Part shown: piece by piece, positions 5,230 to 59,749 of the stretch
Position numbering within the stretch: position 1 is the first letter of the stretch
How the letters are laid out: each line of letters begins with the position of its first letter
Assembly (NCBI GenBank): GCA_029834535.1
Contig: JAQMWT010000367.1
Location: 51,924 to 115,923, forward strand
DNA length: 64,000 nt
Direction: 5' to 3'
DNA from: Chrysophaeum taylorii
Lineage: Eukaryota; Sar; Pelagophyceae; Pelagomonadales; Pelagomonadaceae
Notes under the pieces: model-generated
What the model saw: only the letters and a program-made list of their open reading frames with translations
What the model was told of the DNA's origin: nothing
Databases searched by the model: none
Translations under genes and position numbers: made by a program

Positions 5230-6990
5230 ACTAGAAATGCCATTGCGAAGAGTGTCCCATTCGAGATGAAGGTTCACGTGGTGATGCGAGGCATGGAGGG
5301 TGAGGACAGCATCGTACCTGGCCAGCAGCATGTTGTGCGGGACAGCGTTGTCCAGTGCCTTAAACGCGAAGAACGGTGGGTGCTGACGGAACCGGCGGAG
5401 GAGCTCTGGGTCCGAGTGGTGACCGAATCGTGCGATCTCGTTGAGAGTCGCGTATCGAATGCGATCTGGGGAGACCAGGAAGGGTGCGTTCGAGTAACTG
5501 TTGTTGGTGGGGTACGAGCCAGTGACCGAGTAGCACTTGGTGCTTTTCTGGAGTGTGTCGCCGACATGGCCGACATAGTCCGCGTACGTGGGGCGTGCCT
5601 CGGACATTATTAGTCCTGTGGGGTCATCGATAGTAATTATCCCTCGTGAGTCGATCGCGGCAAAGCCTGGATGCGAACGGTTCATATAATGGACCCACGT
5701 TGAGCGGCGCGAGGAGTTGTGTGCGGCAGCTAAAGAGGTGGTGAAAGCCACGACTAGAAAGGCGGTACCCTCGGGAACAGACATAGAGGAGGCGTGTAGC
5801 GGCGAAAAGGCGGCGGTCTGGTGGGGACAATCCAGGATCTGGGGAACTCGCGAATGGATCGTGAGAGATGCGCGCTCGAAGTAGCCGCATGCGAGCGCGG
5901 TAGCGGCAGTGCCTGGGATGGGTCCATCCAACTGGTATGCGTGTGCAGACTCTGATGCATGATAGCAGCGAAGCGTGATCCAAGCAGCAAGAGTGGGATG
6001 CGATAGCAGATGATAGTGCAGCAATGTGAAGACCAGGAGATTTGGTATGAAAGCCATGGAGGCAAGGGGGTGCCGTCTGCGTCCAGTCCGAGATCCAGGA
6101 AGGGCGCCTTTAGACGTGCGACCATCTGACAGATGCGGGCGTTTTCGGAAATCGAGAGCCACGCATCGGTTGTGGGTGTGTACAAGAAGAGGGCCTTGTG
6201 GCTATAATAATCCAGGGTCGAGCGAGCGACAGTGCCGCGAAGAGCGGGGGCAGATACCCATAGGACTGCTTGGATGGTTTGAACTGGATCCAAGAAGGGA
6301 ACCATGCTCGGAGGGGATATGAGCCAGGGGGAGGCATTTTTCTCGCGATTGTAGCCATCTAGAGGGTGCCGAGCGAAAACTGCGAGGTAGCGGTTCTTGC
6401 TGATGGCGTCGCCGAAGGATGAGGCGTTGTAGACACCGGAGTGTGACGGAAGTAGCCCATACCTTTATAATGTTTGGCGAGTTGCAAATACTCGTGGTGT
6501 GTTTTCGGGTTTGGGGGAACGTTCTCGACATAGCGTAGGTTGGGAGCGTACAACGAACGAAGCGAGCTTGCTCCTTGACAAAAAGGTCGGCAGTCGCTGG
6601 GGTCGCATAGCCGTCGTAGTCTTTCATGATGCTCAGATGTTGACATGGTAGAGTGAAAACTGCCATATCGAATCGAGGCATGCGAACTTTTCCGTTTTGG
6701 AGGTCGGCAGTGAGTTGCCGAAGATCCCCATAGTGCTGGGCGTCTGGAAACAGACGTTGCGTGCGAGCACGCAGGGTGGGGTTAATTTCGCAGGTGGCTA
6801 CGACAATGATTTGTTTGTCGAATCTTTTTGCGAAAGGAAGCGAAACCCTCTTGGTGGAGTCCACCTGCAATGATGGCAACGTGTAGCGGAGGTGGTTGTG
6901 TGGACACAGGGAGGTCCGCGGTGCCAGTGAGTGCATATTCTAAATAAGGGCTGGGCAGTCTGAAAGACTCCGTCAAGAAAGCAGAGTGGA
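5230..6990 (-). pseudogene. C5-cytosine DNA methyltransferase domain inside the copia element
   Basis: All diagnostic C5-MTase blocks are present in order over several frames. Motif I is HVAIIAGGLHQEGF (about 6862-6893). Motif II is ATCEINPTLRARTQRLFPD with following GDLRQL. Motif IV is DMAVFTLPCQHLS, with the catalytic Cys codon at 6643-6645. Motif VI is YVENVPPNPK (about 6500-6535). Motif VIII is SKNRYLAVFARHP (about 6364-6410). After a long target-recognition stretch come IX (RIRYATLNEIARFG, about 5420-5465) and X (ALDNAVPHNML, GN changed to DN, about 5325-5360). The family transfers a methyl group from SAM to C5 of cytosine. Frameshifts between motifs show this copy is dead. The same-strand position between the upstream region and integrase argues that it belonged to the retrotransposon. 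Confidence 0.85.
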
Positions 6991-13726: not shown

Positions 13727-14053
13727 TGTAGTGGTTTTCTCAGATACCCGCCCCTCCTGGCCGGACCGGGGGCCTCAACAACCCTTTCTCCCTACCCGAA
13801 CCGCGGGCGAAACCACCACACGCCCGATCTCAGCGTAATACCTCACGCCATCACGAAATCGACAATCAAAAGATGGTAATATCAAGAAGACAGCAAGAAA
13901 GCAATACAAATGCCCGGTACATTGGGTCCAGTGGAAGCGCAGGTGAAGGTGTCGAGATGACACCCCCCCCCATAAATGCAAGGTCAATACCAGGGCAACA
14001 ACCAGGGTAAGTCAGGTGGCAGGCAAGTGGGGGAAATGGGCGTTGCTGCCACA
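13727..14053 (-). repeat. 3' LTR of the left gypsy element
   Basis: 327 bp, reading on the minus strand TGTGGCAGCAACGCC... to ...GAGAAAACCACTACA. It matches 23649-23979 with scattered differences, for example in an 8-10 base C-run and near the ends. A purine-rich tract lies just inside it. Confidence 0.92.
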
Positions 14054-14066
14054 GGAGCCCCCTACT
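14054..14066 (-). promoter_or_regulatory. Polypurine tract of the left gypsy element
   Basis: Minus strand AGTAGGGGGCTCC abuts the start of the 3' LTR. This is the position and composition expected for the plus-strand primer of an LTR retrotransposon. The right copy has the same tract just before 63678. Confidence 0.65.
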
Positions 14067-14088
14067 TGAGATGAAGTCGTCCTCGACT

Positions 14089-15600
14089 TCAAGGGTGACG
14101 AAGGTCACGCTCACGAATGGTACGATAAGCTCGTTCAGCTACATCAGCAGGAACTTTGTTGCTGTGGAGATCGAAGTTAGTGACGAGGACATCGATTTTA
14201 TCCGGGCGAAAATCAGTCACACAGGGTTCATAGCCCTCCATGTTTGGTCGTAGGCGTGTGAAGCTACCTCCGTCAGGGTCTTTGTATTCTGGTCTTAAGC
14301 GCCGCTCAGCCAGAGGCTTAGTAGGATCAAAGACGCGAGGATCATCGCGTGGTCCCAAATCGGTATAATAGTGAAGCGCAACTGTATCATTGTCGTGGTC
14401 ATATTCTTCGTAGACTTCGGCAACATAGATACGCTTCGTCCACGCGTTGGATCGTCCTTTCACCCTGAAAATCACGAACTTACCATGTTTGAACCGGTCG
14501 CGGTCCGAGGGTAAATGTAGAGGGGCTGAAGAATTGTCGATGGTTGGCACTTTCAAAGGCACAATCTGTTGGACAGATACTACAGCCGATTCAGCATCAT
14601 CGTCGTTAACGTCATGAATTTCATAAACGACGGGAGAGATCTTTCTAGTAACCATGTAAGGTCCGCGCCAAATGGGCCGTAGCTTGTGGCGTGTTTTAGG
14701 CACGAAACGCAGAACATAATCACCTGGGGAAAACTGGATGTCAACTTGGTGGGCATCATAGTTGAGTTTTTGACTCTCCTGTGCTTTCTGATGAGCTCGT
14801 GTAACGAGTCGACTGTAAATTCAAACCTGTTCTTAAAGTCCACCAAAATCTGATGACGTGATTGCGGTAGATCACGCTGTTCACTCAAGAGATTGTAATC
14901 GGGTGGTAACAGGGGTTGCTCGCCAGTACGCATCATGAAAGGTGAAATCTTCGTTCCCGGAATGTACATCCTATTGTACATGAATGACACATATGGGAGG
15001 AAATTCGACCAGTCTGGCTGACGCTGTTCATCGATCGCAGTTCGCAAGAAAGCTTTAATGAATCGATTGACACGCTCAGTATGATTACTCTGAGGATGAT
15101 ACGGAAGGGTAGTACGATAACGTACGTTGAATTGACGAACAAACGTGCGAAATAACCTGTTCGCGAACTCATTTCCATTATCCGTGACTATGCACCGTGG
15201 GAGACATCCCTCAAGTAAAATCTTGTCCACGAACGCGCTCAAAATCGATAATCATGTTTCGTGTTGATCAGAGCCAATTTCAAGAAATGTGATGCTGCAT
15301 CGTACATTGCGAGTATGTACGTGTACAGGTCAGCGCCTCGTAGAGGTCCAATCAAATCCATACCTAGGACATAGCAGTCTCCGACGCGATTCGGTTGACA
15401 GAGCAAGCCATGGCGCTTAGGCATGGTGGATCGAATCTTCTTGCAAATAATGCAGGCATTGACGAACTCTTTTAACGGATGATGAGACGTTTGGCCACCA
15501 TTACCGTTCTAAGATTTGATTCGCTGTGGAATCTCGTCCTACATGGCCTCAGAACAAGCCTCAGTGATGCATGGCGATCACACGCTTCTGCATAGACAGA
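14089..15600 (-). pseudogene. Gypsy integrase plus a conserved C-terminal domain
   Basis: Integrase blocks are MDLIGPLRGADLYTYI (first Asp), IVTDNGNEFANRLF (second Asp), and YHPQSNHTERVNRFIK (catalytic Glu), followed by SFMYNRMYIPGTKISPFMM. Then comes a GPY-type segment (PIWRGPYMVTRKISPVVYEI) and a tail of about 140 residues with HGKFVIFRVKGR, VALHYYTDLGP, RPEYKDPDGGSFTRL and PCVTDFRPDKIDVLV, ending in TAG at 14089. The N-terminal zinc region is damaged in this copy by stops at 15561, 15549 and 15501 and by frameshifts near 15480 and 15247. The right copy reads through the same region as MHHRGLFGGHVGRDS... NACIICQKI, showing the HHCC pattern. Confidence 0.88.
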
Positions 15601-18020
15601 GGGACCACAATAAGACGTTGAGAAGCTGAATCATCGACCTTATACAACACGTTGTCATCAATCTCATATGGTACGGATGACTGCTCGTCTTGATCTTTCT
15701 GTTCCGAATCGAGCTTTCGTCTGATGCGCTTGCATGTTTCATCTTCAGCTTGTTCTTTCGCTATCTCATCGAGAGTGATCTCATCCTCCGCTTGATCCGC
15801 AAAAGGGAGACGTTCGACGGAGTCAACTGGCTCGGATTCGTACGAGAATCGAGGCGGTTGTACGTTCTGTCGCGTACTAACTGCTACCATAGCTGCGGTG
15901 GGTCCGCTGTCCGTCAGCATAGGCATCGTCACCGAAGACAAGGTGAAGCAAGCGGTGCCAGGGACATCGGCGGGGATTTCTTGGAAAATCAAAAAAGCTT
16001 CATTGATCGGTTCCCCGTCTTCATCTTTCTCGATCAATTTGTCGATAGGGTTGCGCGACAGACAACCCCGAATACGCATGCCAGGGGAGCTTCCAGGTTT
16101 GTATCCGAGCTCCCGGTCGAACGCAGCAAGCCGCATAGCCCATCGTGCTAACTGTCCAGACGTATGATTCGAATCCCGCAGAAACGTTAAATTACGATGA
16201 TCCGTCTCTAACTTCGTATGATGACCTTCGATATAAAATCGGAAATTTTCGAGAGCAGAGAGTACTGCGAGGAGTTCCAAGCGCCGAGGATCATACTTCC
16301 TCATCGACTTAGGCACGGTTCGACTCCAGTACTCGATAACTCTCTCTTCGATTCTTTCTCTTCCATCGTCGTCAACGACTGGTACTTTTTGAAATAGGTA
16401 AGCACCCAACCCATGCGCGGAAGCATCAGTTCGAATGTAAAAGGGCAACGAGTAATCAGGGTGGTAGACGCCCTTCGACGTGACAATAGCCTCGATGATG
16501 GCATCCCAAGCTTCCTGACACTCTTTCGTCCACTTGAATTTCACGTCCGGCAACGTCAGTTGTCTTAATGGCTCTGCAACTTTCGCAAAATTCCTTACAT
16601 AACGCCGGCAAAAGCTCCCCATTCCAAGGAAAGATCGCACTTGCTTCTTATGGTCAGCATCCGACAAAGTGCCAGGAATTGGCATGTGTCTGATGGCTTC
16701 TAAAGATCTTGGTGATGGAAGAAGTCCGTTCGGGGTAGATAAATGACCCAAAAACTCAATGACTTCTTGCATAACATGAATCTTCTTGATCTTGGCGCTG
16801 TACCCCTTCAAGGCGGTATGGGGAATAACTTGCACAAGGCACTGCAAGTGATTCTTTGTATCTGCGTGACCGGCGAGAATATCGTCGATATATGCCACGA
16901 GATCACGATATAGCCATTGCGACAAGTCGGTGTTCGACTACTTGCAAAACAAACTTCCGGCTGGTTTGACTCCCAAAGGTAGACGCATGTAGCTGTACGC
17001 TCCCAGAGGACTAGTGAAGGTGACCACATCTTGTGCATCCAGCGACAATCGTAAATTGTGATAGCCCCAACGAATATCCAAACTGGAACGACAAAACTTG
17101 TCAATGAGAAACATCAACGCGTCAGCCATGCTCACACTCGGCCAGCTATCATCCTTGAGCAATGCATTGAGGCGCCGTAGGTCGACAGCTGCTCTGTAAG
17201 CATTGGAAGTGCCAGGCTCAGCACCTTTCTTAGGCAACATCAAAATAGGGAAACCCCATGGAGAATTCGCGGGACGAATAACTCCGTCTCGGGTCCATGC
17301 TTCAATCTGCATCCGCAAACATTCAATCTTTTCTTTCGACAACCGATATGCCGAGAGTTTGACGGGAGTCGGGTTCTCTTCTTTGAACCGGAACGTCACT
17401 TCAGGTGAATCAACAGGTGTCATCACATCATCGAAAAATGCCCACGAATACGAGATTAAATGCTGCATCATCAGCTTCTCGTCATCATCTAAAGCAGGAT
17501 GCTCTGTAATACCCAATTCAGTCATCACCTCTTCGACCTGCGCGACGGTCGGAGGGATGACCTGCATGCTCTCCTGATCCGCTAAATGAGGAGGCATCAC
17601 CGGTGAAGTTTGACCATGTTCGTCGTGAGGCGCGTCCGCCCACGGAACGTCGTACGTATTGAAATACGCTGGTCGCTCTTTCGCGGTGCCTTCTTCTTCA
17701 TCAGTTGCGGAGGGCTGGTTATCGACTTGGTTGCTCTGCATAACAGCAGTGGCGACGGTGCCCCCTGCAAAAGATGACGCCGTCCCAGGCGATGTAACTG
17801 AAGGCGGGGGCGGGGTGGTGGTGGCAGCAGCTGATGGTGCAGGACTCGCAGGAGAATAGAGTTCATCGGGCGCAATCCATGATACACTTCGAGTGGCAGG
17901 GTCGAGCGTTGGAATGCGCGACTCTACAGCAAAAGGTGAAAACCGTAGAATATGGTGATCAGGTTGGGCTAGCGTAGTCGTCGCAATATTCCGCAACTTA
18001 CCCAAATTTCGAAGTGAAGG
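15561..18020 (-). pseudogene. Gypsy reverse transcriptase and RNase H
   Basis: RT blocks are RDGVIRPANSPWGFPILMLP, YRAAVDLRRLNALLKDDSWP, SLDIRWGYHNLRLSLDAQD, VTFTSPLGAYSYMRLPLGVK, and the YxDD box VAYIDDILAG (about 16880-16900). RNase H follows with FYIRTDASAHGLGAYLFQ, then LELLAVLSALENFRFYIEG and ETDHRNLTFL. The tail reads LARWAMRLAAFDRELGYKPG. A TAG at 16938-16940 interrupts the RT just before the YxDD box. The right copy has CAG there (60792-60794). The upstream 17600-18000 stretch is Pro/Thr-rich linker. Apart from stops the frame is continuous with the DNMT upstream. Confidence 0.92.
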
Positions 18021-19310
18021 TTCAAACGAATTGTGCACTGCTAGCGCAATCCGCGTCATAGTCGCGGGTGGCACCATACTGCCAAGCATCTTCATAGCTA
18101 CTGTCTCGGCAACTGTCGCACCCCGTTGCCACGTAGCAGGAACGGTCCTAATTTCCTGGTGCATCTGCAACGTGAGTGGACGGGTGTTCGAGAAATGAGG
18201 ACCTAAGCGGAGCTTATTGCGCGTCACCGTGAAGGCAGGGCCGATAGCCGGGCGCGTAGATGAGAAACTGTTCACTATAATGAGCGGGTGACCACCGGTA
18301 AATCCCAACGCTGGGCCAAAACGGTCCCGTAAATTCGGTGGTACACGCGATAATAACGGCAGTTCCAAGCGAACATTGCAAGCAAGTAGGCGCGTGCGCG
18401 AGCACAGCAGCTCTGGCGTGATACTATAGAAATCAACAATACGCGGCACATAAAATTGGTGATGCACAAAAGGGATCACTGATGGTTCCTGCTCGAGTGT
18501 CCATCGTCCAATCACATAAGGTGCGTTGCGGAAGTGACGAAGGACCCAAGAAGTAATAGTAGCGCCTTTGCGTGCGTCCCTGTAGTGCAAATTGGCAGTC
18601 GATCCATAGATACACGGCGGACTGGCGTGAAAACAAGAATGCTTCCAAAACTAACTAACTAACTAACTTCAGACCTCTCCCGAGCATGGGAGCCAGGCCG
18701 GACAGGCAGGAGCCGATCCGGAATCACAGAGGAAAATCACGCAGTTGGGGCTGAGGCGAGGGACGAGGACTCGTTGATGACGGACCGCCACTGCGCGCGG
18801 TCTTGTGCGAAGTCGTGCAAAAGCGTCGCACGCCGCAAACGTGTTGGTCCACGAACAATCGACCTGTCCGTCGCGTTCTGCCCAACCGAGCGAACCCCAT
18901 CCCAGCGCGGACTTTCCGGGTGCTAACCGGCCAGCCCGGGAGGCGAGCAGGCACCGTCTCACTCCGGGACGGCCGGGGCCGCCGCAGGGAGCAAGCGTGT
19001 TAGGCGCCGTCCTCCATCGCAACCAACGGTTAGCGATCGCAGGGTTACCACGCTCCCAAAAATCTGAGTGTAAATACGACAACACCAGGTCGTATGTACG
19101 ACGATGAGATTTCCCCAGCTCATGCAAAACATAGGGAATCTTCGGAAAATCGAGCTCAAAGGTGGCTCGGGCTTGAGGACAAGCATCCAAAGCCAGGACA
19201 ATGCGAAATGAACTGCCATATAGCTCATTGCATCGCCGGATACCCAACGTTGATCCTCCCGCGCCAGCAAAGTAGACGACGACAAAGGTGTAGGTGATGG
19301 GTATCCAAAC
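18021..19310 (-). pseudogene. C5-cytosine DNA methyltransferase domain inside the gypsy polyprotein
   Basis: Upstream of the insertion are motif I FVVVYFAGAGGSTLGIRR (about 19240-19300), motif II IVLALDACPQARATFELDFP, and a motif III region ending YDLVLSYLHSDF. The non-LTR insert 18651-19051 follows. On the far side, in the frame obtained by removing the insert and one TSD, are motif IV FHASPPC (Cys codon 18612-18614), motif VI-like IGRWTLEQEP, motif VIII-like CSRTRLLACNVRLELP, motif IX TRPLTLQMHQEIRTVP and motif X MKMLGSMVPPATMTRIA (about 18041-18110). The SPPC form of motif IV is known from some phage and bacterial cytosine methyltransferases and differs from the PCQ form in the copia element here. 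It lies between protease and RT in a continuous polyprotein, so it was made as part of gag-pol. Confidence 0.87.
18651..19051 (-). mobile_element. Non-LTR tail inserted in the gypsy DNMT
   Basis: A 401 bp minus-oriented insert has a (TTAG)n tail (on + CTAA repeats from 18651) and flanks GCTTCCAAAA (18641-18650) and GCTCCCAAAA (19052-19061), a 10 bp TSD with one mismatch. It begins AACCCTGCGATCGC like the 31781 copy. The internal sequence holds a degraded LINE ORF2 C-terminal motif (around AQDRAQWRS). The insertion separates motif III from the catalytic motif IV of the DNMT. Confidence 0.9.
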
Positions 19311-19817
19311 CAAGGAGGCGTGCTTAGATAGCAGCTCCTTAACAGTCGCCTCCATCTCCATTTCTGGTGTTTTTTTCACTTCTTCATCTGGAGGTGGCCG
19401 AGGAGGAGGTCTGTCACTCAAGACATCCTCCTCGACTTCATCGTCGTCAACAGCAGCCGTAAGAGTGGCATGACACACGTCATCAGTGGCTTCTAGCTGC
19501 ATGTTGACACATCCTTCATGCGGCATGATCTCGCCTTCGACCACCGGGACTTCGGGGTCGATACCAATGGGTTCGTCACCAATGTGCTCCACAGCCACAT
19601 GAACTTTCGTTGGGCTCATCAGCACAATACGATGAATAGGAACCAGGTACAAGGCGGAGATCTTTGAGGAGTGACCGATATAAGGTCGGAATACGTGACT
19701 CTTTTCCAGCGGCACATCGCACTCCATCTCCAAGAAGTATGGTTGGTTTGGAAGAAGAAATCGAGTACTCGTCACGTACGCGAAATGAGGGATGATATCT
19801 TCCTCGTCTGCAGGGCA

Positions 19818-22800
19818 TTAAAGTTGGTCTTCAGCTTTTCCAGCAGTCTGATCGCCGGAAGGAATGTGATGGTGATTCGCTCTGATACGAATAGAACGCA
19901 ATAGACTGTCATAACTCCACGGTTTACCAACTGGCGTCCAAGTTTGGATATTTCCGTATTGCACAGCAAGCTTAGCTGTCGGAAACATCTGCACTACCTG
20001 CGGAGTCGCATCGTATGCATCATTGTAAAGGACAATTCCATGCTGGTCTTGTGGCGAGGCGGAAGTCCGATTCTTGAGAACTCCAATGGTCACTTCAGAA
20101 CGCCGAAAAATAGCTCTCTCTGTCGCATAATCAAAAATCGTACCCAAGAGTCGTAATTCTCGTGCTCCTAATAGTAACTGCCCATTCGTTTGACCAACGA
20201 AGAACATGAGCAGCATGGATGTCGTCGGCACCAAGGAGATCCGGAGAATGACCCATTCTCGAATAGCAGCTCCCGAACGTCCTGATCCATTTAGAGTACG
20301 AATAGTAGGGAGTGGCTGACGATAGATGATTTTGCCGTCACGATCAAGTTTGCGATACAAGCGGTGATCGATGTAGGGGGAATCAGCCATGCCATCCAAA
20401 CCGGCAGCAATGATGGAATATTTCGAACCATCTTGCGAAAAGATAGCCACAGGCACATACGTCAAAGAGGCGGATCTCGTGCCATCGTACCTTACGGCTT
20501 TATTTTCACGATGGTCGGGATCCTGAGTGATATTCAACGCAGTCTGAGGGCAGAAATTCTCGAAATCCGAAGAGATGGAAGGGTGAGCAACATAACGCTC
20601 GGCACAGTCGTCCCTCGGTGGCACTATATCCATGGCAACCAAGGTATCTTGTCCCACACGAACAATCGTATACCCCAATTCGTCACGATTATCTTCGTCT
20701 TCCGAAAGAACTCTAGATGCAACTCCAGTCACTTCGGTACTTTGTTCCTGCTCCTCCACCCATGCATCTTCAGTGATGACCAACAAGGAAGGAGGTTCCA
20801 TGGGGTCACCAGGGGAATAGCCTTCTGCAGAGAAGCTATCATCATCGCCCCCAACCTCGTCATCGTCATACACGTTGCCCTCCATGAGCTCAGAATACTG
20901 TACAGTGCAGTAATCCGCTCGCTTAGTGTCATCCTGATCTTCGCCAAGCACTTCAAGCCACTGAGCGGCGACAACATCATTGTGCTGGCTAGGGTTCGCT
21001 CTCTGAGACTGTCGCCCTCTACCCGGCGGAGCCGTCTGCTGTGCCTGACGAATCAAGTTCATCGTGTTGAGAGCCGTAGTCAGATCCTCCAGGCGCACCG
21101 AGGTCTGAGCGGTCCGCTGCACTGCGGGCTGCCTTCGGACCACCTGTTGTTGAGAGCCTGCAACCAAACGCTGCTGAGTCCCTGCAACCAGCTGCTGTTG
21201 ACCTGCACCTGGCACCTGTGCTGCTGTGTAGACCACCTGCGGCTGTTGCACAACGCGCGGCGCCAGCTGAGTCACTGAAGCCTGTCCTGCTGCAGCTAAA
21301 AGCGTCCGTCGGTATTGCTCCTGTCCCTCTGGTGTTGCTGGAAAACCCGCAGCCGTCAACGTCTGAGCAGCACGCCTCTTCCTCGAGGGATTGTCCGGCA
21401 CAGGACATACACCGTTGTCGTGGTAAAAACTACCATGCCGGCCGCAACTGAGGCACGTCGTAATTGCTTGACGCGTATGGTTATATATCCCCCCCGGTGG
21501 TAGCCAGGTTCCAACTCCCGAGTCAGTAACATAACCAACCCGTTGGACTGGCTGCAACTGCTGCCTCTGCTGCTGCTGCTCTCTCCTCATTCGTGGTGCG
21601 TGCTCCTTTCCTTTCTCCTTCTTAATCGCATCTTCGATGTTGGCAGTAGGGTTGGCTTCCAGAATCTTGGAAATTTGGATGGTCAATTGAATGACATCGT
21701 TGAGGGTGAGAGTAGATGCTTTCATATGCGGTGAGGCCTGAGCAAGTTCGACGCTCGTCCGCAAGCGCTCAGAATTGAGACCAGCAATAAAGTGCGAACG
21801 GAACGCAGCCGGATCAGTATCGCGACCTGACATTGCTCTCCACTGGCCGAATTTCTGCACCCATCGCGCGATATACTTATTCAATGACAAATTCCCTTGC
21901 CGTAAATTGAACCATTCACGTTCAAGCTCCTCAACCGTAGCCCGAGGTGGACAAGGAAGCTTCGTCGCCTCTTGCATAGCATCCAGACAGTCCTCATCAT
22001 GCTGGCGCAACTCTTTCATTGTGATGGTCCCATCCTTGTATTGTTTCCACATCTGCGGTCGTTAAACTTCCCACTTGCGATAAGCTGCCATAGGGGCGAG
22101 TTGATACTCGCCTCCAATCGCATTCATCGCTATTGAAGGTTTATCAATCTTGCCTTCCATCATACGCCGCAATTGCATCCACCACGCGTCCACCTCATCA
22201 CGGTCCTTGGTAATTTGCCCCGTGAGATTCGAAAATGTGATACTTGTCATACCAGCAGCCCCCTTCTTGACACGAAGTATCTCTTCTTCGTCACGAGGAC
22301 GCGCCGAACCGGGGTCAGTATGATGGTGCGGGGTAGGCTCCGGTCGACTTCGCGGTGGCTGATCGTCGGTCAGTGCCGATACAGCGTCATCATCGTCGTC
22401 GGGCGTAACACGCGTAGCATTCGGAGAGGCTGGCCGTGCCTCTCGAGCATGCGCCCGCATAGATTCCTCCATCATTCGCCGAAGTCGATCGCTATCGATC
22501 CGCTGTCGCTCCACTTCTGAGCGTTGTTGTTGAGCGTCGCGGCGGGTGTTCTCAAGTTCACGTATGATTTGCTCCATCTGCGACTGGTACATCTCGAATC
22601 GTTCGTTGATGGTCTGCAGAACCTCGGGGTCGACATCCCCGCGAAAATCTGTCGCTCTCGTATTCACAGATGGTGGCCTAGGAGGCGCACTCTCCTCTGG
22701 TCCACGCATCGCCGTAAACGGTTCGGGTTCCGCTCGAGATGACTCCGTAGTATTCATCGCACGTTCGTAGTGTCGTGCGTACGGGAACGTCGGATCACCT

Positions 22801-23069
22801 GGTCTTGAAGTTGCGTCTGGCGCAACCGTAGCCCCCCCTTCGCCGCCGCGTGGATCCGGAAGGATGACCACGCTTGGGGGGCTGTCGAGGCTATCATATG
22901 ATCTTGCCTCTCTTCCGATGCCGCTTTCCTCGGCTTCCTGTCGTTGAAAGGGTGTACTGAACGGTGTTCTTCCAATAGACGCAAATGGAGTCCCTGCACT
23001 GAATCATTGCAGACGCCCCTGTGCGTCCCGAAACCACTGCGATCGTTCTGTCATTGGTCTCTCTACCAT
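19818..23069 (-). pseudogene. Gypsy gag and protease
   Basis: The most upstream ATG in frame is at 23069 (MVERPMTERSQWFRDAQG). The frame has TGA at 23004-23006, TAA at 22062-22064 and TAA at 19818-19820. Each is a sense codon in the right copy, and after the last stop the frame runs on into the DNMT. Gag shows a coiled-coil region (RFEMYQSQMEQIIRELENTR, QQRSEVERQRIDSDRLRRM). A capsid-like region follows (WWMQLRRMMEGK, FNLRQGNLSLNKYIARWVQK, FRSHFIAGLNSERLR), then a Gln-rich stretch. The zinc knuckle is CLSCGRHGSFYHDNGVC (about 21401-21470), spaced C-x2-C-x7-H-x4-C. The protease region has IIAAGLDGMADSPYID and LLGARELRLLGTIFDY; the usual DSGA/DTGA active site reads DGMA in both copies. Confidence 0.88.
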
Positions 23070-23225
23070 GATCGCGATTTGCCCGGATAATAGGTTTGTT
23101 CCGGACGTTCTCAACTCACTTGTTGTATTCTTTTCGTCAGACGACAATTGCCGGCAGCCGTCTGACTACTGCGCGCTGTACCGGTGCGCTGGTCTTATGG
23201 AAGTAGTAGCCTTGCGCGTGAAGAC

Positions 23226-23453
23226 TATGGACGGTCTTCCCGGTGTAGTCGCTCGCCGTCAGGGAGGTGGTCTGCCTCGCGCGAGCTAGGTTAGGACTTA
23301 TAACAATGCCTTACGATATGCAAAAGTATGCAAAATGAGTATGGACGGCCTTCCCGGTGTAGTCGCTCGCCGTCAGGGAGGTGGTCTGCCTCGCGCGAGC
23401 TAGGTTAGGACTTATAACGATGCCTTACGATATGCAAAAGTATGCAAAATGAG
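23226..23453 (-). repeat. Two tandem 114 bp units in the gypsy leader
   Basis: Units 23226-23339 and 23340-23453 both start TATGGACGG and end TATGCAAAATGAG, with only a few differences (TCTTCC/CCTTCC, AACAATG/AACGATG). They lie in the untranslated leader between the 5' LTR and gag. The right copy keeps both units. Packaging, dimerisation or internal-promoter roles are possible, but nothing in the sequence proves one. Confidence 0.9.
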
Positions 23454-23602
23454 TCGTAGTGACTCCGCTCCCCGTTCGATCCGAATCACGTAAAATGAAC
23501 CCCGCGGCGGTACCCGTGATCCTCTGGATCTTCACCCACAAATGCGTCGGCTTCGCACTCACTCGACCGTTACGAACCGACTCGCCGCCGAAAAACAGGA
23601 GG

Positions 23603-23629
23603 TCGATAGTCCGGGAGTTGGACTATCGA
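23603..23629 (-). promoter_or_regulatory. Perfect stem-loop next to the gypsy 5' LTR
   Basis: Arms TCGATAGTCC (23603-23612) and GGACTATCGA (23620-23629) with a 7-base loop, about 20 bases inside the 5' LTR on the transcript side. The base stretch between it and the LTR (minus strand GTGGTCTCGGAAACGG) is where a tRNA primer-binding site should be. A TGG lies one base from the LTR end, but I cannot name the tRNA. Confidence 0.6.
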
Positions 23630-23648
23630 TTCCCGTTTCCGAGACCAC

Positions 23649-23979
23649 TGTAGTGGTTTTCTCAGATACCCGCCCCTCCTGGCCGGACCGGGGGCCTCAA
23701 CAACCCTTTCTCCCTACCCGAACCGCGAGTGAAACCACCACACGCCCGATCTCAGCGTAATACCTCACGCCATCACGAAATCGGACAATCAAAAGAGGGT
23801 AATATCAAGAAGACAGCAAGAAAGCAATACAAATGCCCGGTACATTGGGTCCAGTGGAAGCGCAGGTGAAGGTGTCGAGATGACACCCCCCCCATAAATG
23901 CAAGGTCAATACCAGGGCAACAATCAGGGTAAGTCAGGTGGCAGGCAGGCAAGTGGGGGAAATGGGCGTTACTGCCACA
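23649..23979 (-). repeat. 5' LTR of the left gypsy element
   Basis: 331 bp, TG...CA ends, matching 13727-14053. Differences between the two LTRs (for example CGGGCG/CGAGTG, AACCAGGG/AATCAGGG, one extra GGCA unit) show the element is not a fresh insertion. Confidence 0.92.
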
Positions 23980-25186: not shown

Positions 25187-28100
25187 CTACCAATCTATTG
25201 ATTCTTGCTTGAATTCCCCTACATCCCTCATCAATAACGACTGTCCAGCCTCAAGATGGTGCGCGGGTTGGGCGCGAGGTTGGAACCACCCTCGGTTCGG
25301 GCTATTTGAAATGCCGATCTCGTCGTAAGTCCAGGGCAGCTTGTCCGAGTTCATCGCGATGAACATTATGGCCCTCAGCAGCTCCGAGCCGAGGCGGTTG
25401 CGGAGCTTGCCGACGGCACGACCCGCGTGCGAGAAGATGCTCTCAACGTCCGCCTCCGTCATCGGCGCCGAGAGGTGCGCTCGAAGGAGCGCGGCGTGGA
25501 TGGGGTACTCGTCTTTGAAGGCAGCGAGGAAGGCGAACATGTCGACCCCAGACTTCTTCTTCTTGAACTGCCTGAAGGCACCTGTATTCAGCTTGAGGTT
25601 GGCGAAGGCGGTCTTCTCCTTGTGTCGCGCGTCATTGTTATACTTGGACGCCGGTAGCACGAACGGCTCGGTGGCCGGCGGGGGCGTCGTCGCTGTCGTC
25701 GTCGTCGCTGTCGGCATCAAAGCCGCCGGCTGCGTGGGCACGAGCCAGATTGGCACGGCGCCCAGCGTGATCGTCTTCGTCCGGGCCGTCGACAACGACG
25801 ACGGCGTCTTCGTTTTCCTCTTTTGTGGAGCGGCGCTTCGTGCCTCGCTTGCTAGGTGAAGGGGCAGTTCCCTTGTTCACGCCGCCACGAGCGACGGCGA
25901 ACTGTGCCAAGTGCTCATCTTGCTGCCGTTTCCACGCCGCTTTCTCCGCGTCGTGCAGCAAGTCGGCGTACTTCTCGAACTCCTGCGAGTAAATTTTCTC
26001 GGCTTTATCTTTATCTGCTGCAGAGAAAATCGGTCGCTCCTCAGAGTCTATCGTCCTCGTCGCCGATGTCCAGCTGAAGCCAACGTCCAACATGGCGCAC
26101 ATGAGCACATTGCTGTCCGGACATGAAACGCGCCTGTCGATGGACTTGACGGCAGCCTCGAGCATCTTCTTGATCATGGGGACCATCCCTGTTTGCGTCG
26201 TGTTCACGAGCTCATCGTGATTCAGGCGCTTCGTCCTGTCGCGCTCGTCCAGTTTCGGCAACACCAGAGTCCCTCGCTTGTAATGGTTGCGCAATTGGAT
26301 GGTGAGACGGTATACGCGGTGCGGCTCGACAACGCCCTTGATCGTATCCGACTTGTGGGCTTGCGTCTTGTTGGTGACTTCGCCTAGCGGATCAAGAAAG
26401 GCCTCGACCTGGCGATCCTCTTGCTTCAGATCTGGGTTGCGGTAGTGCGGGGACTTGGTCGAGTCTGTCGTGTTGCTCAGGTACTTGCGCCGCATCGTCG
26501 TCTTGGGCGGAACCTCGGGCTCGGCTGTGTCAGCCATTTCAACGTCGTCCCAATCACCCGCGGCACCCTCGGCTGCTCTGGCGACAACGACCGCGGCACC
26601 GTCCTGGTCGTCATCATCCGCATGAACAACTCGCGGTGGCAGCGCGTCCTCGATGTCCTCAATGACGACCGTTCTCAAGTCACCAATTTCCTCCTCAAGC
26701 TCCAAATCAACGTCATATTCGGCAGCAGCCCTCGCGTATACCCCCGGAAAGTGCCTGTTGACGGTCCTGTTCATAAAACTGGCAGTAATATTGTCCAGCC
26801 TTAGCATGCGGAGATCACCTCCCCAACGCGTTAGGTTCCGGCCGCCGAGGACGCTCAGAGTCTGGTAAGCCTTGACGCCGGCGTCGATCTGCAACTTCTT
26901 AAAGCAGTTCTGCGCCTTGGTCGATCCACGAACAGCCGCGTGCCTAGTTCGGAGCGCCTTCATGTGCGCTGCGTACTCCGGCACGTCCTTTTCAACGTCG
27001 CTCTCGACAAGGGCGAGGATGTGGGGCGTGCACCAGCGCGCGACAATTCCGGCAAGGCGCATGGCGAGACGGCCGTTTGCCGCTCCGTCGAGAACAATCT
27101 TGACGAGGTCGTCCAGCCGGACGTTGACTTCCTTTAGAGCCTTGACGGTGAAGTGCAGGATATTCTTGCCGGTGTGCTCATTATCGTCGAAAGAGTCGAA
27201 GGCGATGAGGAACTCTTCGGTTTTTGCCGTATCGGTAACGTACGTAGGATTTTCGATCATCCTGGCGTACTTCTCCTCGTCGCCCGAGTGCCTGGCCTCG
27301 CGGAGTTCCTCGACCGTGTACGACACATCCATCTTCCCAAGCTGGACTATTTTCAAAGTGATGGCAACAAACGAGCGGCTGACGTTCTCAACGGTCCAGA
27401 TGTCCATGCCAGCGCTCGCATACGGGCCTCGGACTTCTTCCCGGACGGTGCTGACGAGCTTAACGAGGTGGCCGCGCAGCACCTCGAAGATGGAATGCAA
27501 GATCAAGTTGAGCGTTGGCCGTGACGGGGCGCGGTACCTTGGGTCCAATTTACCGAAGAAGTTCCTGGCCGCTTTGGTGGAACCCAACATCAGCGCGCGC
27601 ATGTCCTTCGCCATCCAAACCGCGCAGTCGACATGAAAAGACCACGCCGCCTCCAGCGTATAGCGCTTGACGATCTGGCCGTCGGCGCCCGTAGTGATCG
27701 AGGTCTGGGTTTGCTCGACGTATGCGCTATAGACGTCGGGAAAGTCCCGTTTGAGGTAGCGGAAAAACTCCTTGGTGCTCGAGCCCGGTTTATCCTTTGT
27801 GCCACCCCAGGTCCAGTACACCGTCTTCTTCGGCTTCAGGTCGAGAACGCAACGATAGCCCCACTTCCAGCTGCCTTCTTCCCCATTCCTGCAAACCTGC
27901 TGCTTGACGTGTGGCTCGATCAGCTCGAAGAAGCTCGCAGCGGTAGACAAAGTAGAAATCTCTTCAGTGGCTGCTGCCGCGCCCTCGATGCGCCTGTGGA
28001 GTCCCGGGTTGCTGGCGAGATGCTGCTGCGCCTTGCTGAGTAGCTCGGCGCGCTCTGCCGTTTTGTTGAAGTCCCGGGCCCAGGTCTCAACCACCGCCAC

Positions 28101-28626
28101 CGACTCCCACTGTAAATTCTCGTCGCCGCGGCCTTCCTGGTTTTCCAGCGTGAACTTGGCCATCGCCATCGTCTTGATGCCGGGCGGGTTGTTCTTCCGC
28201 CCTTGAATCACGGGATGCCTCGGGTCGAAGTCGATTATAGTGGCCGTGTCCTTCTTCTTTCGCGCCGATCCCGGCACCGTGCTCGGGTCCCACCACCCTC
28301 CAGGCACCAAAATCTTTTGCCCACACCGCACGTATGTTTTAAATCTCCCCTCTAGGTCCGGCGTCACGGTCAACTTGCTGACCGAAGCCAGTTTCTTCGA
28401 CGCCGCCGGTTTCTTGCCGCTGCCTCCCATTTTGCCGCCGCTCAGGACCCCTCGCTGTCCTGTTCCAGCTCTTCTTCGCTCGCGCCGCCCACCCACCACA
28501 ACATCCCCACGCCCAACGCGCCCAGACCCACGCGAGGCACGTCCTCTTCCGCTTCCAATTTCCATCACACTTTTCGATCTTTGGCTATGGTTGGGGTGTT
28601 GGGTGGTCCTTAGCGTCGGTATCCAT
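25187..28626 (-). pseudogene. hAT-family transposase (left copy)
   Basis: A cut-and-paste transposase of about 1,100 residues. A long frame runs 28568 to 25638 and, after a frameshift near 25690 in an Asp-rich stretch, continues to TAG at 25187. An ATG at 28626 (MDTDAKDHP) is in the leader, but its frame stops soon after; the right copy joins it directly to the main frame. Key hAT blocks are AGMDIWTVENVSRSFVAITL (first Asp), KIVLDGAANGRLAMRLAGI followed by ARWCTPHILALVESD (second Asp and C-x2-H), NLTRWGGDLRML, and the C-terminal dimerisation region ADVESIFSHAGRAVGKLRN, RLGSELLRAIMFIAMN. The N-terminal part has a Cys/Trp-rich stretch (WKWGYRCVLDLKPKKTVYW) where a BED finger is usual. Terminal inverted repeats and TSD were not found. 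Confidence 0.88.
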
Positions 28627-28713
28627 GGGTAGATTTTGTTTGAAATTATCTAGATTCTGGGAACGTGACGAAGGAAGCGAAATAACGAAGGAATCTTCAA
28701 TACAGTGAAATCG

Positions 28714-31780: not shown

Positions 31781-32177
31781 ACCCTGCGATCGCTAACCGT
31801 ATGGTTGCGATGGAGGACGGCGCCTAACACGCTTGCTCCCTGCGGCGGCCCCGGCCGTCCCGGAGTGAGACGGTGCCTGCTCACTTCCCGGGCTGGCCGG
31901 TTAGCACCCGGAAAGTCCGCGCTGGGATGGGGTTCGCTCGGTTGGGCAGAACGCGACGGACAGGTCGATTGTTCGTGGACCAACACGTCCGCGGCCTGCG
32001 ACGCTTTTGCAAGACCTCGCACAAGACCGCGCGCAATGGCGGTCCGCCATCAACAAGTCCGTCCTCGTCCCTCGCCTCTGCCCCGACTGCGTGATTTTCC
32101 TCTGAGATCCCGTACCGGCTCCTGCCGGTCCGGCCTGGCTCCCATGCTCGGGAGAGGTGGTCTGAAGTTAGTCAGTT
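31781..32177 (+). mobile_element. Non-LTR tail, first of three in series
   Basis: Starts AACCCTGCGATCGC and ends TTAGTCAGTTA. The flanks CATACCACTCC and TATACCACTGA suggest a TSD around ATACCACT. Inside, the frame LAQDRAQWRSAIN resembles the C-terminal end of LINE ORF2 proteins, so the family is probably LINE 3' ends. Same orientation as the next two. Confidence 0.8.
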
Positions 32178-32200
32178 ATACCACTGAATTCATGAACGCC

Positions 32201-32494
32201 GTAGGTTGGCACCTGTTCGCCTCCCGGGCTGGCCGGTTGGCAGCTGGAACGTTCGCAGTGGGACGGGGTATGGCCGGGGGGCGCAGACGGAAGGTTATCG
32301 TCGAGTTGGTTGTCAGTCACATCGCGGTCCACGTCGCGTGGCGACAAGCGTGATGATCACTCTCCGCCGTCCCACCTTTCGGCGCCCCTTGTCTACAGAC
32401 CCGTGATTCCGGACTGGCTCCTGTCTGTCCGGCCTGGCTCCCATGCTCTATGCTCCTATGCTCGGGAGAGGCCCGAGGTTAGTTAATTAGTTAG
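32201..32494 (+). mobile_element. Non-LTR tail, second of three, 5'-truncated
   Basis: Begins GTAGGTTGGCACC, inside the consensus, so it is 5'-truncated. It ends in TTAGTTAATTAGTTAG and is flanked by TTCATGAACGCC (32189-32200) and TTTATGAACGCC (32495-32506). Confidence 0.82.
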
Positions 32495-58474: not shown

Positions 58475-59705
58475 CACCTACACCTTTGTCGTCGTCTACT
58501 TTGCTGGCGCGGGAGGATCAACGTTGGGTATCCGGCGATGCAATGAGCTATATGGCAGTTCATTTCGCATTGTCCTGGCTTTGGATGCTTGTCCTCAAGC
58601 CCGAGCCACTTTGAGCTCGATTTTCCGAAGATTCCCTATGTTTTGCATGAGCTTGGGAATCTCATCGTCGTACATACGACCTTGTGTTGTCGTATTTACC
58701 TCAGATTTTTGGGAGCGTGGTAACCCTGCGATCGCTAACCGTTGGTTGCGATGGAGGACGGCGCCTAACACGCTTGCTCCCTGCTGCGCCCCGGCCGTCC
58801 CGGAGTGAGACGGTGCCTGCTCGCCTCCCGGGCTGGCTTAGCACCCGGAAAGTCCGCGCTGGGATGGGTCGCTCGGTTGGGCGACGCGACGGACTCGATT
58901 GTTCGTGACCAACACTTTGCGGCGTGCGACGCTTTTGCACTTCGCACAAGACCGCGCGCATGGCGGTCCGTCATCAGATTCCTCGTCCTCGCCTCAGCCC
59001 AACTGCGTGATTTTCCTCGTGATTCCGTCGTCCTGTCCGGCCTGGCTCCATGCTCGGGAGAGGTCTGAATTTAGTTGTTAGTTTTTTGGAAGCATTCTTA
59101 TTTTCACGCCAGTCCGCCGTGTATCTATGGATCGACTGCCAATTTGCACTACAGGGACGCACGCAAAGGCGCTACTATTACTTCTTGGGTCCTCGTCACT
59201 TCCGCAACGCACCTTATGTGATTGGACGATGGACACTCGAGCAGGAACCATCAGTGATCCCTTTTGTGCATCACCAATTTTATGTGCCGCGTATTGTTGA
59301 TTTCTATAGTATCACGCCAGAGCTGCTGTGCTCGCGCACGCGCCTACTTGCTTGCAATGTTCGCTTGGAACTGCCGTTATTATCGCGTGTACCACCGAAT
59401 TTACGGGACCGTTTTGGCCAGCGTTGGGATTTACCGGTGGTCACCCGCTCATTATAGTGAACAGTTTCTCATCTACGCGCCCGGCTATCGGCCCTGCCTT
59501 CACGGTGACGCGCAATAAGCTCCGCTTAGAGTCCTCATTTCTCGAACACCCGTCCACTCACGTTGCAGATGCACCAGGAAATTATGACCGTTCCTGCTAC
59601 GTGGCAATGGGGTGCGACAGTTTCCGAGACAGTAGCTATGAAGATGCTTGGCAGTATGGTGCCACCCGCGACTATGACGCGGATTGCGCTAGCAGTGCAC
59701 AATTC
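58475..59705 (+). pseudogene. Gypsy DNMT domain (right copy)
   Basis: Motif I FVVVYFAGAGGSTLGIRR and motif II IVLALDACPQARATL are open in one frame. The inserted non-LTR tail follows at 58717-59083, then the SPPC block (about 59105-59130) and, in pieces, WTLEQEPSVIPF, CSRTRLLACNVRLELP and MKMLGSMVPPATMTRIA. It has the same domain architecture and the same insertion site as the left copy. Confidence 0.85.
58717..59083 (+). mobile_element. Non-LTR tail in the right gypsy DNMT
   Basis: TSDs TTTTGGGAGC (58707-58716) and TTTTGGAAGC (59084-59093), the same one-base mismatch as the left copy. The body is about 34 bases shorter through many 1-4 nt gaps. Confidence 0.88.
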
Positions 59706-59749
59706 GTTTGAACCTTCACTTCGAAATTTGGGTAAGTTGCGGAATATTG

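What the first reader, a model, noticed from the sequence alone, without database searches (positions are those of the whole stretch)
18021..19310. Gypsy polyprotein carries a C5-cytosine methyltransferase between protease and RT
Seen: FAGAGGSTLG (motif I), ALDACPQARATFELDFP (II), HASPPC (IV), WTLEQEP (VI), CSRTRLLACN (VIII), TRPLTLQ (IX) and GSMVPPATM (X), in order and in frame with RT once the later insertion is removed. Known: DNMT capture by LTR retrotransposons has been reported in dinoflagellates and charophytes. Inferred: the element made its own cytosine methyltransferase, which could mark its cDNA or alter host silencing. The SPPC form of the catalytic loop suggests a source different from eukaryotic DNMT1/DNMT3.
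Basis: partly seen in the sequence, partly recalled or inferred. Interest (0 to 1): 0.92.

Follow-up and report, generated by a model that had tools for sequence, protein, structure and literature searches.

The report
Methyltransferase carried by algal retrotransposons
Many copies, whole or broken, of a jumping gene in an alga carry a cytosine-methyltransferase domain inside their replication polyprotein, and a second kind of jumping gene in the same alga carries a different such domain in a similar slot.

Summary
The window's minus strand holds a Ty3/Gypsy element (LTRs 13727-14053 and 23649-23979) with a C5-cytosine methyltransferase (MTase) between protease motif and reverse transcriptase. 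The window copy is broken by in-frame stops and a 411-bp repeat inside the MTase. Unbroken copies elsewhere in the genome match PF00145 at about 1e-9 and keep protease motif, MTase, RT, RNase H and integrase in one frame. Genome searches counted 157 matches of the window's clade and 132 of a sister clade (MTase 43% identical). Between subfamilies the MTase is the best conserved of six stretches compared (85% identity, dN/dS 0.056; RT 0.054). Unexpectedly, a Ty1/Copia family of the same genome (154 matches) carries a different C5-MTase, also the next domain after its protease motif. The other C5-MTases found were DNMT2 and DNMT5, in searches that can miss divergent ones. The host is an unnamed photosynthetic alga, probably of the chlorophyll-c kind. 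Precedents are Klebsormidium Gypsy and Symbiodinium DIRS/LINE elements (de Mendoza 2018). New here: the host, an enzyme without evident Dnmt3 features, and two LTR superfamilies in one genome. cDNA methylation is inferred. Structure prediction failed; no clear methylation footprint was found.

The parts
13727..23979 (-). whole Ty3/Gypsy element, LTR to LTR (10,253 bp), inserted in a C/T-rich minisatellite; flanks share the 4 bases TCCC, weak evidence in such a repeat
   Evidence: LTR pair and flanks; minisatellite
23649..23979 (-). 5' LTR (331 bp, TG...CA)
   Evidence: 321 matching columns, 5 mismatches (4 transitions), 6 gap columns against the other LTR
13727..14053 (-). 3' LTR (327 bp, TG...CA)
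19821..23003 (-). gag region and protease region, one frame with an in-frame stop at 22062-22064
   Evidence: ORFs; Retrotrans_gag E=0.018, below cut-off
20142..20408 (-). protease-like stretch (AAGLDGMADSPYI ... LLLGARELRLLG)
   Evidence: positions; named by motif reading, no Pfam hit
19062..19310 (-). C5-methyltransferase, N-terminal part (motifs I and II)
   Evidence: homologous to the L042/L039 domains with PF00145 hits
18651..19061 (.). 411-bp repeat insertion that splits the methyltransferase; TTTTGG duplication, (TTAG)n end
   Evidence: limits; ends read
18021..18650 (-). C5-methyltransferase, C-terminal part (motifs IV, VI, VIII, IX, X; catalytic Cys in HASPPC at 18612-18629)
15564..17414 (-). 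reverse transcriptase and RNase H; YIDD at 16869-16892; in-frame stop at 16938-16940
   Evidence: RT_RNaseH E=1.4e-26; RVT_1 in two pieces, both below cut-off; positions
14092..15251 (-). integrase region, its last part in another frame
   Evidence: rve E=0.00064 and Integrase_p58_C E=3e-5, both below cut-off; frames

Best explanation
Shown: the domain belongs to the C5-cytosine methyltransferase family by sequence, is built into the Pol part of a high-copy Ty3/Gypsy family of an alga in one reading frame with RT, RNase H and integrase, and is held by strong purifying selection. Inferred: the element's protease releases it as a Pol subunit, it is packaged with RT and integrase, and it methylates the element's cDNA before or at integration, so that each new copy arrives already marked. 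That would shield the cDNA from surveillance of unmethylated DNA or set the chromatin state of the new copy. The host's DNMT5, of a maintenance type by recall, could then perpetuate the mark. A Copia family in the same genome took up a different C5-MTase in an equivalent place, which suggests a shared benefit rather than an accident.
For: C5-MTase identity: Pfam 8.7e-10 and 1.1e-9, PHROG DNA methyltransferase 8.6e-12, hhalign 97.6% with two phage C5-MTases over 86 columns, motifs I to IV. One frame with RT/RH/IN in natural loci L040 and L063. Copies: 157 matches, 132 of the sister clade. Selection: MTase dN/dS 0.056 (85% aa identity), RT 0.054 (83%), pro 0.130, linkers 0.23 and 0.41; second pair of subfamilies 0.042-0.046. 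In 42 distinct copies in hand: PPC 42, RxR 42, VPP 41, motif VI Glu 40. Copia MTase: PF00145 1.1e-7 in one frame with RVT_2 1.6e-38, dN/dS 0.10-0.15, 154 matches. Host DNMT2 and DNMT5. Analogy: SymbioDIRS-Dnmt3 methylates CG de novo (PMC5890265, abstract and section 11).
Against: No activity data. The residue after the catalytic Cys is I or V instead of Q, and motif VI reads EQE instead of ENV (canonical forms recalled). The tested SymbioLINE DNMT did not methylate DNA in yeast (PMC5890265 section 11), so retroelement DNMTs need not be DNA enzymes. Mutation spectra give no clear methylation signature: columns with majority C and some T number 49 of 356 at CpG against 31/304 (CpC), 41/402 (CpA), 38/312 (CpT); columns with majority T and some C number 46, 37, 27 and 39 in the same order. 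CpG observed/expected of the element is 1.08. Retroelements without an MTase replicate elsewhere. Both AlphaFold models were unusable (mean pLDDT 38.5 and 31.5).
Confidence: 0.55

Rival explanations
1. The enzyme methylates RNA, for example the primer tRNA or the packaged genomic RNA, not DNA.
For: Small domain without recognised companion domains. Sarre 2025 (PMC12344493, section 5) notes that RNA-associated DNMT2/DNMT6 lack companion domains and that orphan DNMTs could be either. Weak PDB matches of the profile include DNMT2 (E=1.8 and 1.9). de Mendoza 2018 raises RNA as a target for the LINE DNMTs.
Against: The nearest PDB matches are entries named cytosine-specific methyltransferase, though only at E=0.03-0.85. 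In the polyprotein it precedes RT, where cDNA is made.
Confidence: 0.2
2. Self-restraint: the MTase silences newly integrated copies, lowers the element's load on the host, and so prolongs its survival.
For: de Mendoza 2018 lists this possibility (section 11). Many copies are present, and a DNMT5 is in the genome.
Against: Selection on the MTase equals that on RT, as expected for a domain needed in each replication cycle; group-level restraint would be weaker (inference).
Confidence: 0.13
3. The domain is catalytically dead and is kept as a nucleic-acid-binding or structural part of Pol.
For: Unusual motif IV (PCI/PCV) and motif VI (EQE); poor match to solved MTases.
Against: Catalytic Cys and motif VIII Arg pair in 42 of 42 distinct copies, motif VI Glu in 40 of 42; these are invariant among the subclade representatives, which are 40-43% identical across the deepest split.
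Confidence: 0.1
4. Chance motifs, or a host methyltransferase gene fragment trapped once in one copy.
For: The window copy alone is broken and matches Pfam weakly.
Against: Very many copies, one frame in natural loci, purifying selection.
Confidence: 0.01

Closest known systems
KnitGypsy-Dnmt3 of Klebsormidium nitens (de Mendoza et al. 2018, PMC5890265; section 9 read)
   Same: LTR Gypsy element with a cytosine MTase inside the Pol polyprotein; purifying selection on the MTase (Ka/Ks < 0.2 there, 0.056 here); multicopy
   Different: There a Dnmt3-type enzyme (recalled loop: PCN) and a DIRS-like arrangement of repeats; here an SPPC-loop enzyme without evident Dnmt3 features, ordinary paired LTRs, another host lineage, and a different MTase in a Copia family of the same genome
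SymbioDIRS-Dnmt3 and SymbioLINE-Dnmt of Symbiodinium (same paper; section 6 read)
   Same: Retrotransposon-encoded C5-MTases in high copy number; the LINE type also belongs to no known eukaryotic DNMT class
   Different: DIRS (tyrosine recombinase) and LINE elements, no DDE integrase; DNMT3 or orphan LINE lineage
DIRS elements with Dam-like adenine methyltransferases (as cited in PMC5890265, section 6)
   Same: A methyltransferase in a retroelement's coding region
   Different: Adenine enzyme, structurally unrelated to cytosine DNMTs; another element class
Phage C5-MTases (L045, L046; PHROG 116/363)
   Same: Motifs I, II, IV, IX and X line up
   Different: 24-25% identity over the alignment, whose middle part is misaligned; PCQ and ENV present there; not in a polyprotein

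Membership tests
C5-cytosine methyltransferase (PF00145) | Profile match above the curated cut-off (22 bits) | tested here: met
   38.6 and 39.0 bits for unbroken copies L039 and L042, 23.8 bits for L043, 22.7 bits for L063; not met by the split window pieces
C5-cytosine methyltransferase (PF00145) | Ordered motifs I, IV (PC), VI (E), VIII (RxR), X (VP) | tested here: met
   of 42 distinct copies PPC 42, motif VI Glu 40, RxR 42, VPP 41; F.GAGGS in the same open frame upstream 27 (the others lack it there, for example through stops, insertions or a changed residue). Departures from the recalled canon: PCI/PCV for PCQ, EQE for ENV
C5-cytosine methyltransferase (PF00145) | Rossmann-like MTase fold | tested here: inconclusive
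   AlphaFold models with mean pLDDT 38.5 and 31.5; not searched further
C5-cytosine methyltransferase (PF00145) | Methylation of cytosine | not testable with these tools
   needs an enzyme assay
Ty3/Gypsy LTR retrotransposon | Order RT-RNase H-integrase in Pol, RVT_1-type RT | tested here: met
   on natural loci; window pieces
Ty3/Gypsy LTR retrotransposon | Paired LTRs with TG...CA ends | tested here: met
   window copy
Ty3/Gypsy LTR retrotransposon | Recognisable retropepsin | tested here: inconclusive
   motif reading only (D-G-M-A-D); no Pfam protease match
Ty1/Copia LTR retrotransposon (the second family) | RVT_2-type RT, integrase before RT, LTRs | tested here: met
   RVT_2 1.6e-38 at 1686-1933; rve at 1016-1110 weak and below cut-off (E=0.0061) in L051; direct repeats near 60.5 and 69.9-70.1 kb of C96, ends not delimited
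KnitGypsy-Dnmt3 | MTase belongs to the Dnmt3 clade | tested here: inconclusive
   loop SPPC rather than the recalled Dnmt3 form, and no DNMT3 among PDB matches up to E=10; no Dnmt3 rows were available for the tree
KnitGypsy-Dnmt3 | DIRS-like arrangement of terminal repeats | tested here: not met
   ordinary LTR pair
Host DNMT2 or DNMT5 lineage | Element enzyme groups with the host's cellular DNMTs | tested here: inconclusive
   no supported grouping seen (Copia with the DNMT5 row at 66/64 only), and branches of 8-10 changes per column make the tree unreliable

The most novel reading that the evidence does not exclude
In an alga whose only cellular C5-MTases found here are DNMT2 and a DNMT5, two LTR superfamilies (Ty3/Gypsy and Ty1/Copia) each captured a different C5-MTase into the slot after the protease, so that the MTase becomes a subunit packaged with the replication complex. 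The retrotransposons would then supply the missing de novo methylation, marking their cDNA before integration, and the host's DNMT5 would copy the mark. This would be a convergent answer to host surveillance of unmethylated DNA, and transposons would be the source of new 5mC in a DNMT5 genome.
Probability: 0.25. Interest if true: 0.88.

Novelty: new variant of a known kind. Interest (0 to 1): 0.66.

Why it matters
Retrotransposons are usually the targets of DNA methylation. Elements that carry the enzyme themselves have been described in two lineages (de Mendoza 2018). This case adds another kind of host and an enzyme that does not look like Dnmt3. It also gives what look like two separate gains, by two LTR superfamilies in the same genome and, by order of domains, in an equivalent place. 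That turns a curiosity into a repeated pattern with a possible shared cause, and gives a single-genome system in which to ask whether transposons can be the de novo source of 5mC where a DNMT5 maintains it.

Tried and rejected
Prokaryote genomes: 142 pattern stretches, none confirmed. Viral contigs: the first scan found 2 phage MTases at 32-33% identity over 93-94 residues; later scans with the Gypsy and Copia profiles confirmed none of 73 and 94 stretches.

Structure: two AlphaFold jobs gave unusable models, so no fold search was made. PDB by sequence: marginal (E=0.03-0.85; one search also lists an unrelated glycosyltransferase at 1.7); nothing for the Copia enzyme.

Phylogeny: a 36-row tree (6 Gypsy, 2 Copia, 2 host, 26 phage rows; the phage rows are every third of the 80 loci) showed the Gypsy enzymes as one group (100/100) and the Copia enzymes as another (100/100), but branches of 8-10 changes per column leave their source undecided. 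Profile comparison saw no link between the two (hhalign 0.1%); at this distance that does not exclude one.

Methylation footprint: pairwise transition rates were 0.033 at CpG and 0.026 at other C, and seemed raised at CpT (0.048); counting segregating columns removed the CpT excess and left CpG slightly highest. 28 of the 30 fetched loci were used (two of other length dropped).

My first motif count ran on 46 loci, four of which repeat places held under another id, and its patterns allowed Asp for Glu; the count in the report is the stricter recount on 42 distinct copies.

Host name: not found. 84 light-harvesting matches. One of these proteins against the PDB: the four best rows are LHCI chains of entry 9vfj (3e-37 to 2e-30; organism not shown), followed by fucoxanthin chlorophyll a/c-type and other light-harvesting chains from 3e-29; so chlorophyll-c kind is a likely reading, not proof. 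An rRNA motif pattern had no match; '697 contigs' found no fitting paper.

Literature: searches. No title or abstract start in those listings, apart from de Mendoza 2018 (charophyte and dinoflagellate), reports a C5-MTase in LTR elements, and none reports two LTR superfamilies of one genome with one. Four papers were opened, in parts: PMC5890265, PMC12344493, PMC9998398 and PMC11347835 (passages: methyltransferases there concern DMSP). Sarre 2025 names 'LTR Copia and DIRS' for the DNMT3 cases and cites de Mendoza 2018, whose text says Gypsy.

Full report
WHAT IS THERE. The minus strand of window 13727-23979 is a Ty3/Gypsy element with two LTRs of 327 and 331 bp, 5 mismatches in 326 compared positions plus 6 gap columns, TG...CA ends. 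It sits inside a C/T-rich minisatellite, so the shared flanking TCCC is weak evidence for a target duplication. The motifs checked from 23003 down to 15042 are all in one frame, which is interrupted by in-frame stops (at least 22062-22064, 19818-19820, 16938-16940 and 15561-15563) and by a 411-bp insertion at 18651-19061; the last part of the integrase region runs on in another frame. The insertion has a TTTTGG duplication and a (TTAG)n end (read).

IS IT A C5-METHYLTRANSFERASE. The window pieces match Pfam weakly because the domain is split. I therefore used unbroken natural copies from the same genome instead of joining the window pieces. Their domain matches PF00145 at 8.7e-10 and 1.1e-9, PHROG DNA methyltransferase families at up to 8.6e-12, and two phage C5-MTases in profile comparison at 97.6%, over 86 columns covering motifs I to IV. 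NCBIfam dcm matches weakly and far below its cut-off (5e-5 to 3.4e-3). PDB matches are marginal: entries named cytosine-specific methyltransferase at E=0.03-0.85, DNMT2 at 1.8-1.9, no DNMT1 or DNMT3 up to E=10. In 42 distinct copies in hand, PPC is present in 42, RxR in 42, VPP in 41, the motif VI Glu in 40, and F.GAGGS in the same open frame upstream in 27. These copies are not a random draw: 30 are the best matches of one search, and the count is anchored near motif IV. Departures from the canon as I recall it are I/V after the catalytic Cys and EQE in motif VI.

IS IT PART OF THE ELEMENT. Yes. In L040 one natural frame of 1,798 aa holds DNA_methylase, RVT_1, both RNase H models, H2C2 and rve (rve below cut-off). 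In L063 a natural frame of 2,959 aa within the fetched stretch has the MTase between a protease motif and RT, with RNase H and integrase after it. The search with the window's C-terminal half counted 157 matches (150 of 750 candidates scored, not all shown); a search with a 43%-identical sister domain counted 132 (132 of 999 scored). Matches include fragments, and a broken copy can give more than one; on the other hand many candidates were left unscored. Frames of 1,800 aa or more without a stop inside the match stand at 4 places of the list and 10 of the 132.

SELECTION. Comparing L041 with L039 in six stretches: MTase 85% identity, dN 0.093, dS 1.67, ratio 0.056; RT and the start of RNase H 83%, 0.054; protease 73%, 0.130; pro-MTase linker 54%, 0.229; MTase-RT linker 73%, 0.413; gag 50%, 0.097 with saturated dS. 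Most dS values exceed 1.4, so the ratios are rough. Two comparisons between two further subfamilies give 0.046 and 0.042 for the MTase; across the deepest split dS is saturated. Integrase was not compared. The MTase is kept as strictly as RT, which points to a job in replication.

A SECOND, DIFFERENT CASE. Of the 57 PF00145 matches (123 of 474 candidates scored), two are cellular genes: L001 is DNMT2 (PDB 1g55, 3.9e-39) and L002 is DNMT5 (PDB 7r76, 1.1e-128; that this entry is fungal DNMT5 is recalled, the record calls it Rad8). The other 55 all overlap matches, compared by eye; so do the other 10 of the 12 matches of the dcm model. The one search list holds no Gypsy copy, so other divergent or intron-split DNMTs may be missed too. 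The second family is Ty1/Copia: L051 has one natural 1,952-aa frame with a DGGAS protease motif, then PF00145 (1.1e-7), then rve (E=0.0061, below cut-off), then RVT_2 (1.6e-38), and short direct repeats at both ends. 154 matches were counted with one subfamily's domain as query (150 of 497 scored). Its MTase has FTLPCQ and ENV motifs and a long stretch before the last motif, and dN/dS of 0.10-0.15 over 235 codons. Profile comparison sees no kinship with the Gypsy MTase (0.1%), although each resembles phage C5-MTases (97.6% and 55%). So two captures are likely, in both families as the next recognised domain after the protease motif, with a linker of a few hundred residues; a common origin too old to see is not excluded.

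HOST. The assembly is 70.8 Mb in 697 contigs, unnamed. 84 matches to light-harvesting proteins make it a photosynthetic alga. The one such protein compared matches LHCI chains of PDB 9vfj best and fucoxanthin chlorophyll a/c-type chains next, so a chlorophyll-c alga is likely; the species was not found.

MECHANISM. Position and selection suggest a Pol subunit released by the protease and packaged with RT and integrase. The most economical use is methylation of the element's cDNA. de Mendoza et al. report de novo CG methylation by SymbioDIRS-Dnmt3, none by the tested SymbioLINE enzyme, and propose cDNA methylation (PMC5890265, abstract and sections 6, 9 and 11 read). Steps shown here: family identity, in-frame embedding, selection, two element families. 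Steps inferred: processing, packaging, activity, substrate, effect. No clear mutational footprint of methylation was found: columns with majority C and some T are 49 of 356 at CpG, 31 of 304 at CpC, 41 of 402 at CpA, 38 of 312 at CpT, and the reverse columns 46, 37, 27 and 39. CpG observed/expected is 1.08 in the element, 1.12 in the rest of the window, and 1.26-1.46 in four host-gene loci.

NOVELTY. Retrotransposon-borne DNMTs are known in dinoflagellates (DIRS, LINE) and in a charophyte (Gypsy). The passages of Hoguin 2023 that I saw (PMC9998398, 12 of 16 places) mention no such element in haptophytes or pelagophytes; Sarre 2025 (PMC12344493, section 5 and passages) mentions the earlier cases and 'orphan' DNMTs. 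Hence a new variant of a known kind: another host lineage, an enzyme without evident Dnmt3 features, ordinary LTRs, and what looks like convergent capture by two LTR superfamilies in one genome.

Noticed in passing
window 59194-59712 (+): A second, broken copy of the Gypsy MTase C-terminal half (79% identity, 4 stops; C367:111117-111635).
   Followed up: no
window 6511-6831 (-): A fragment of the Copia-type MTase (77% identity; C367:58434-58754), so both MTase families are present in this window.
   Followed up: no
window 20370-20408; L043, L063: The Gypsy protease motif reads D-G-M-A-D where retropepsins usually have D-[ST]-G-A (recalled); the same in the frames read of L039-L044 and L063. 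The Copia protease motif reads D-G-G-A.
   Followed up: no
window 18651-19061 and 31781-32353: A short repeat with a (TTAG)n end inserted in the MTase; a similar stretch is open in frame at 31781.
   Followed up: partly
window 25638-28649 (-): A 1,003-aa frame whose C-terminal end looks by eye like a hAT-type transposase dimerisation region; no Pfam match.
   Followed up: no
L002 (G000:C621): Host DNMT5-like gene in a 2,086-aa open frame; with DNMT2 the only non-element C5-MTase found (introns, divergence and unscored candidates may hide others).
   Followed up: partly
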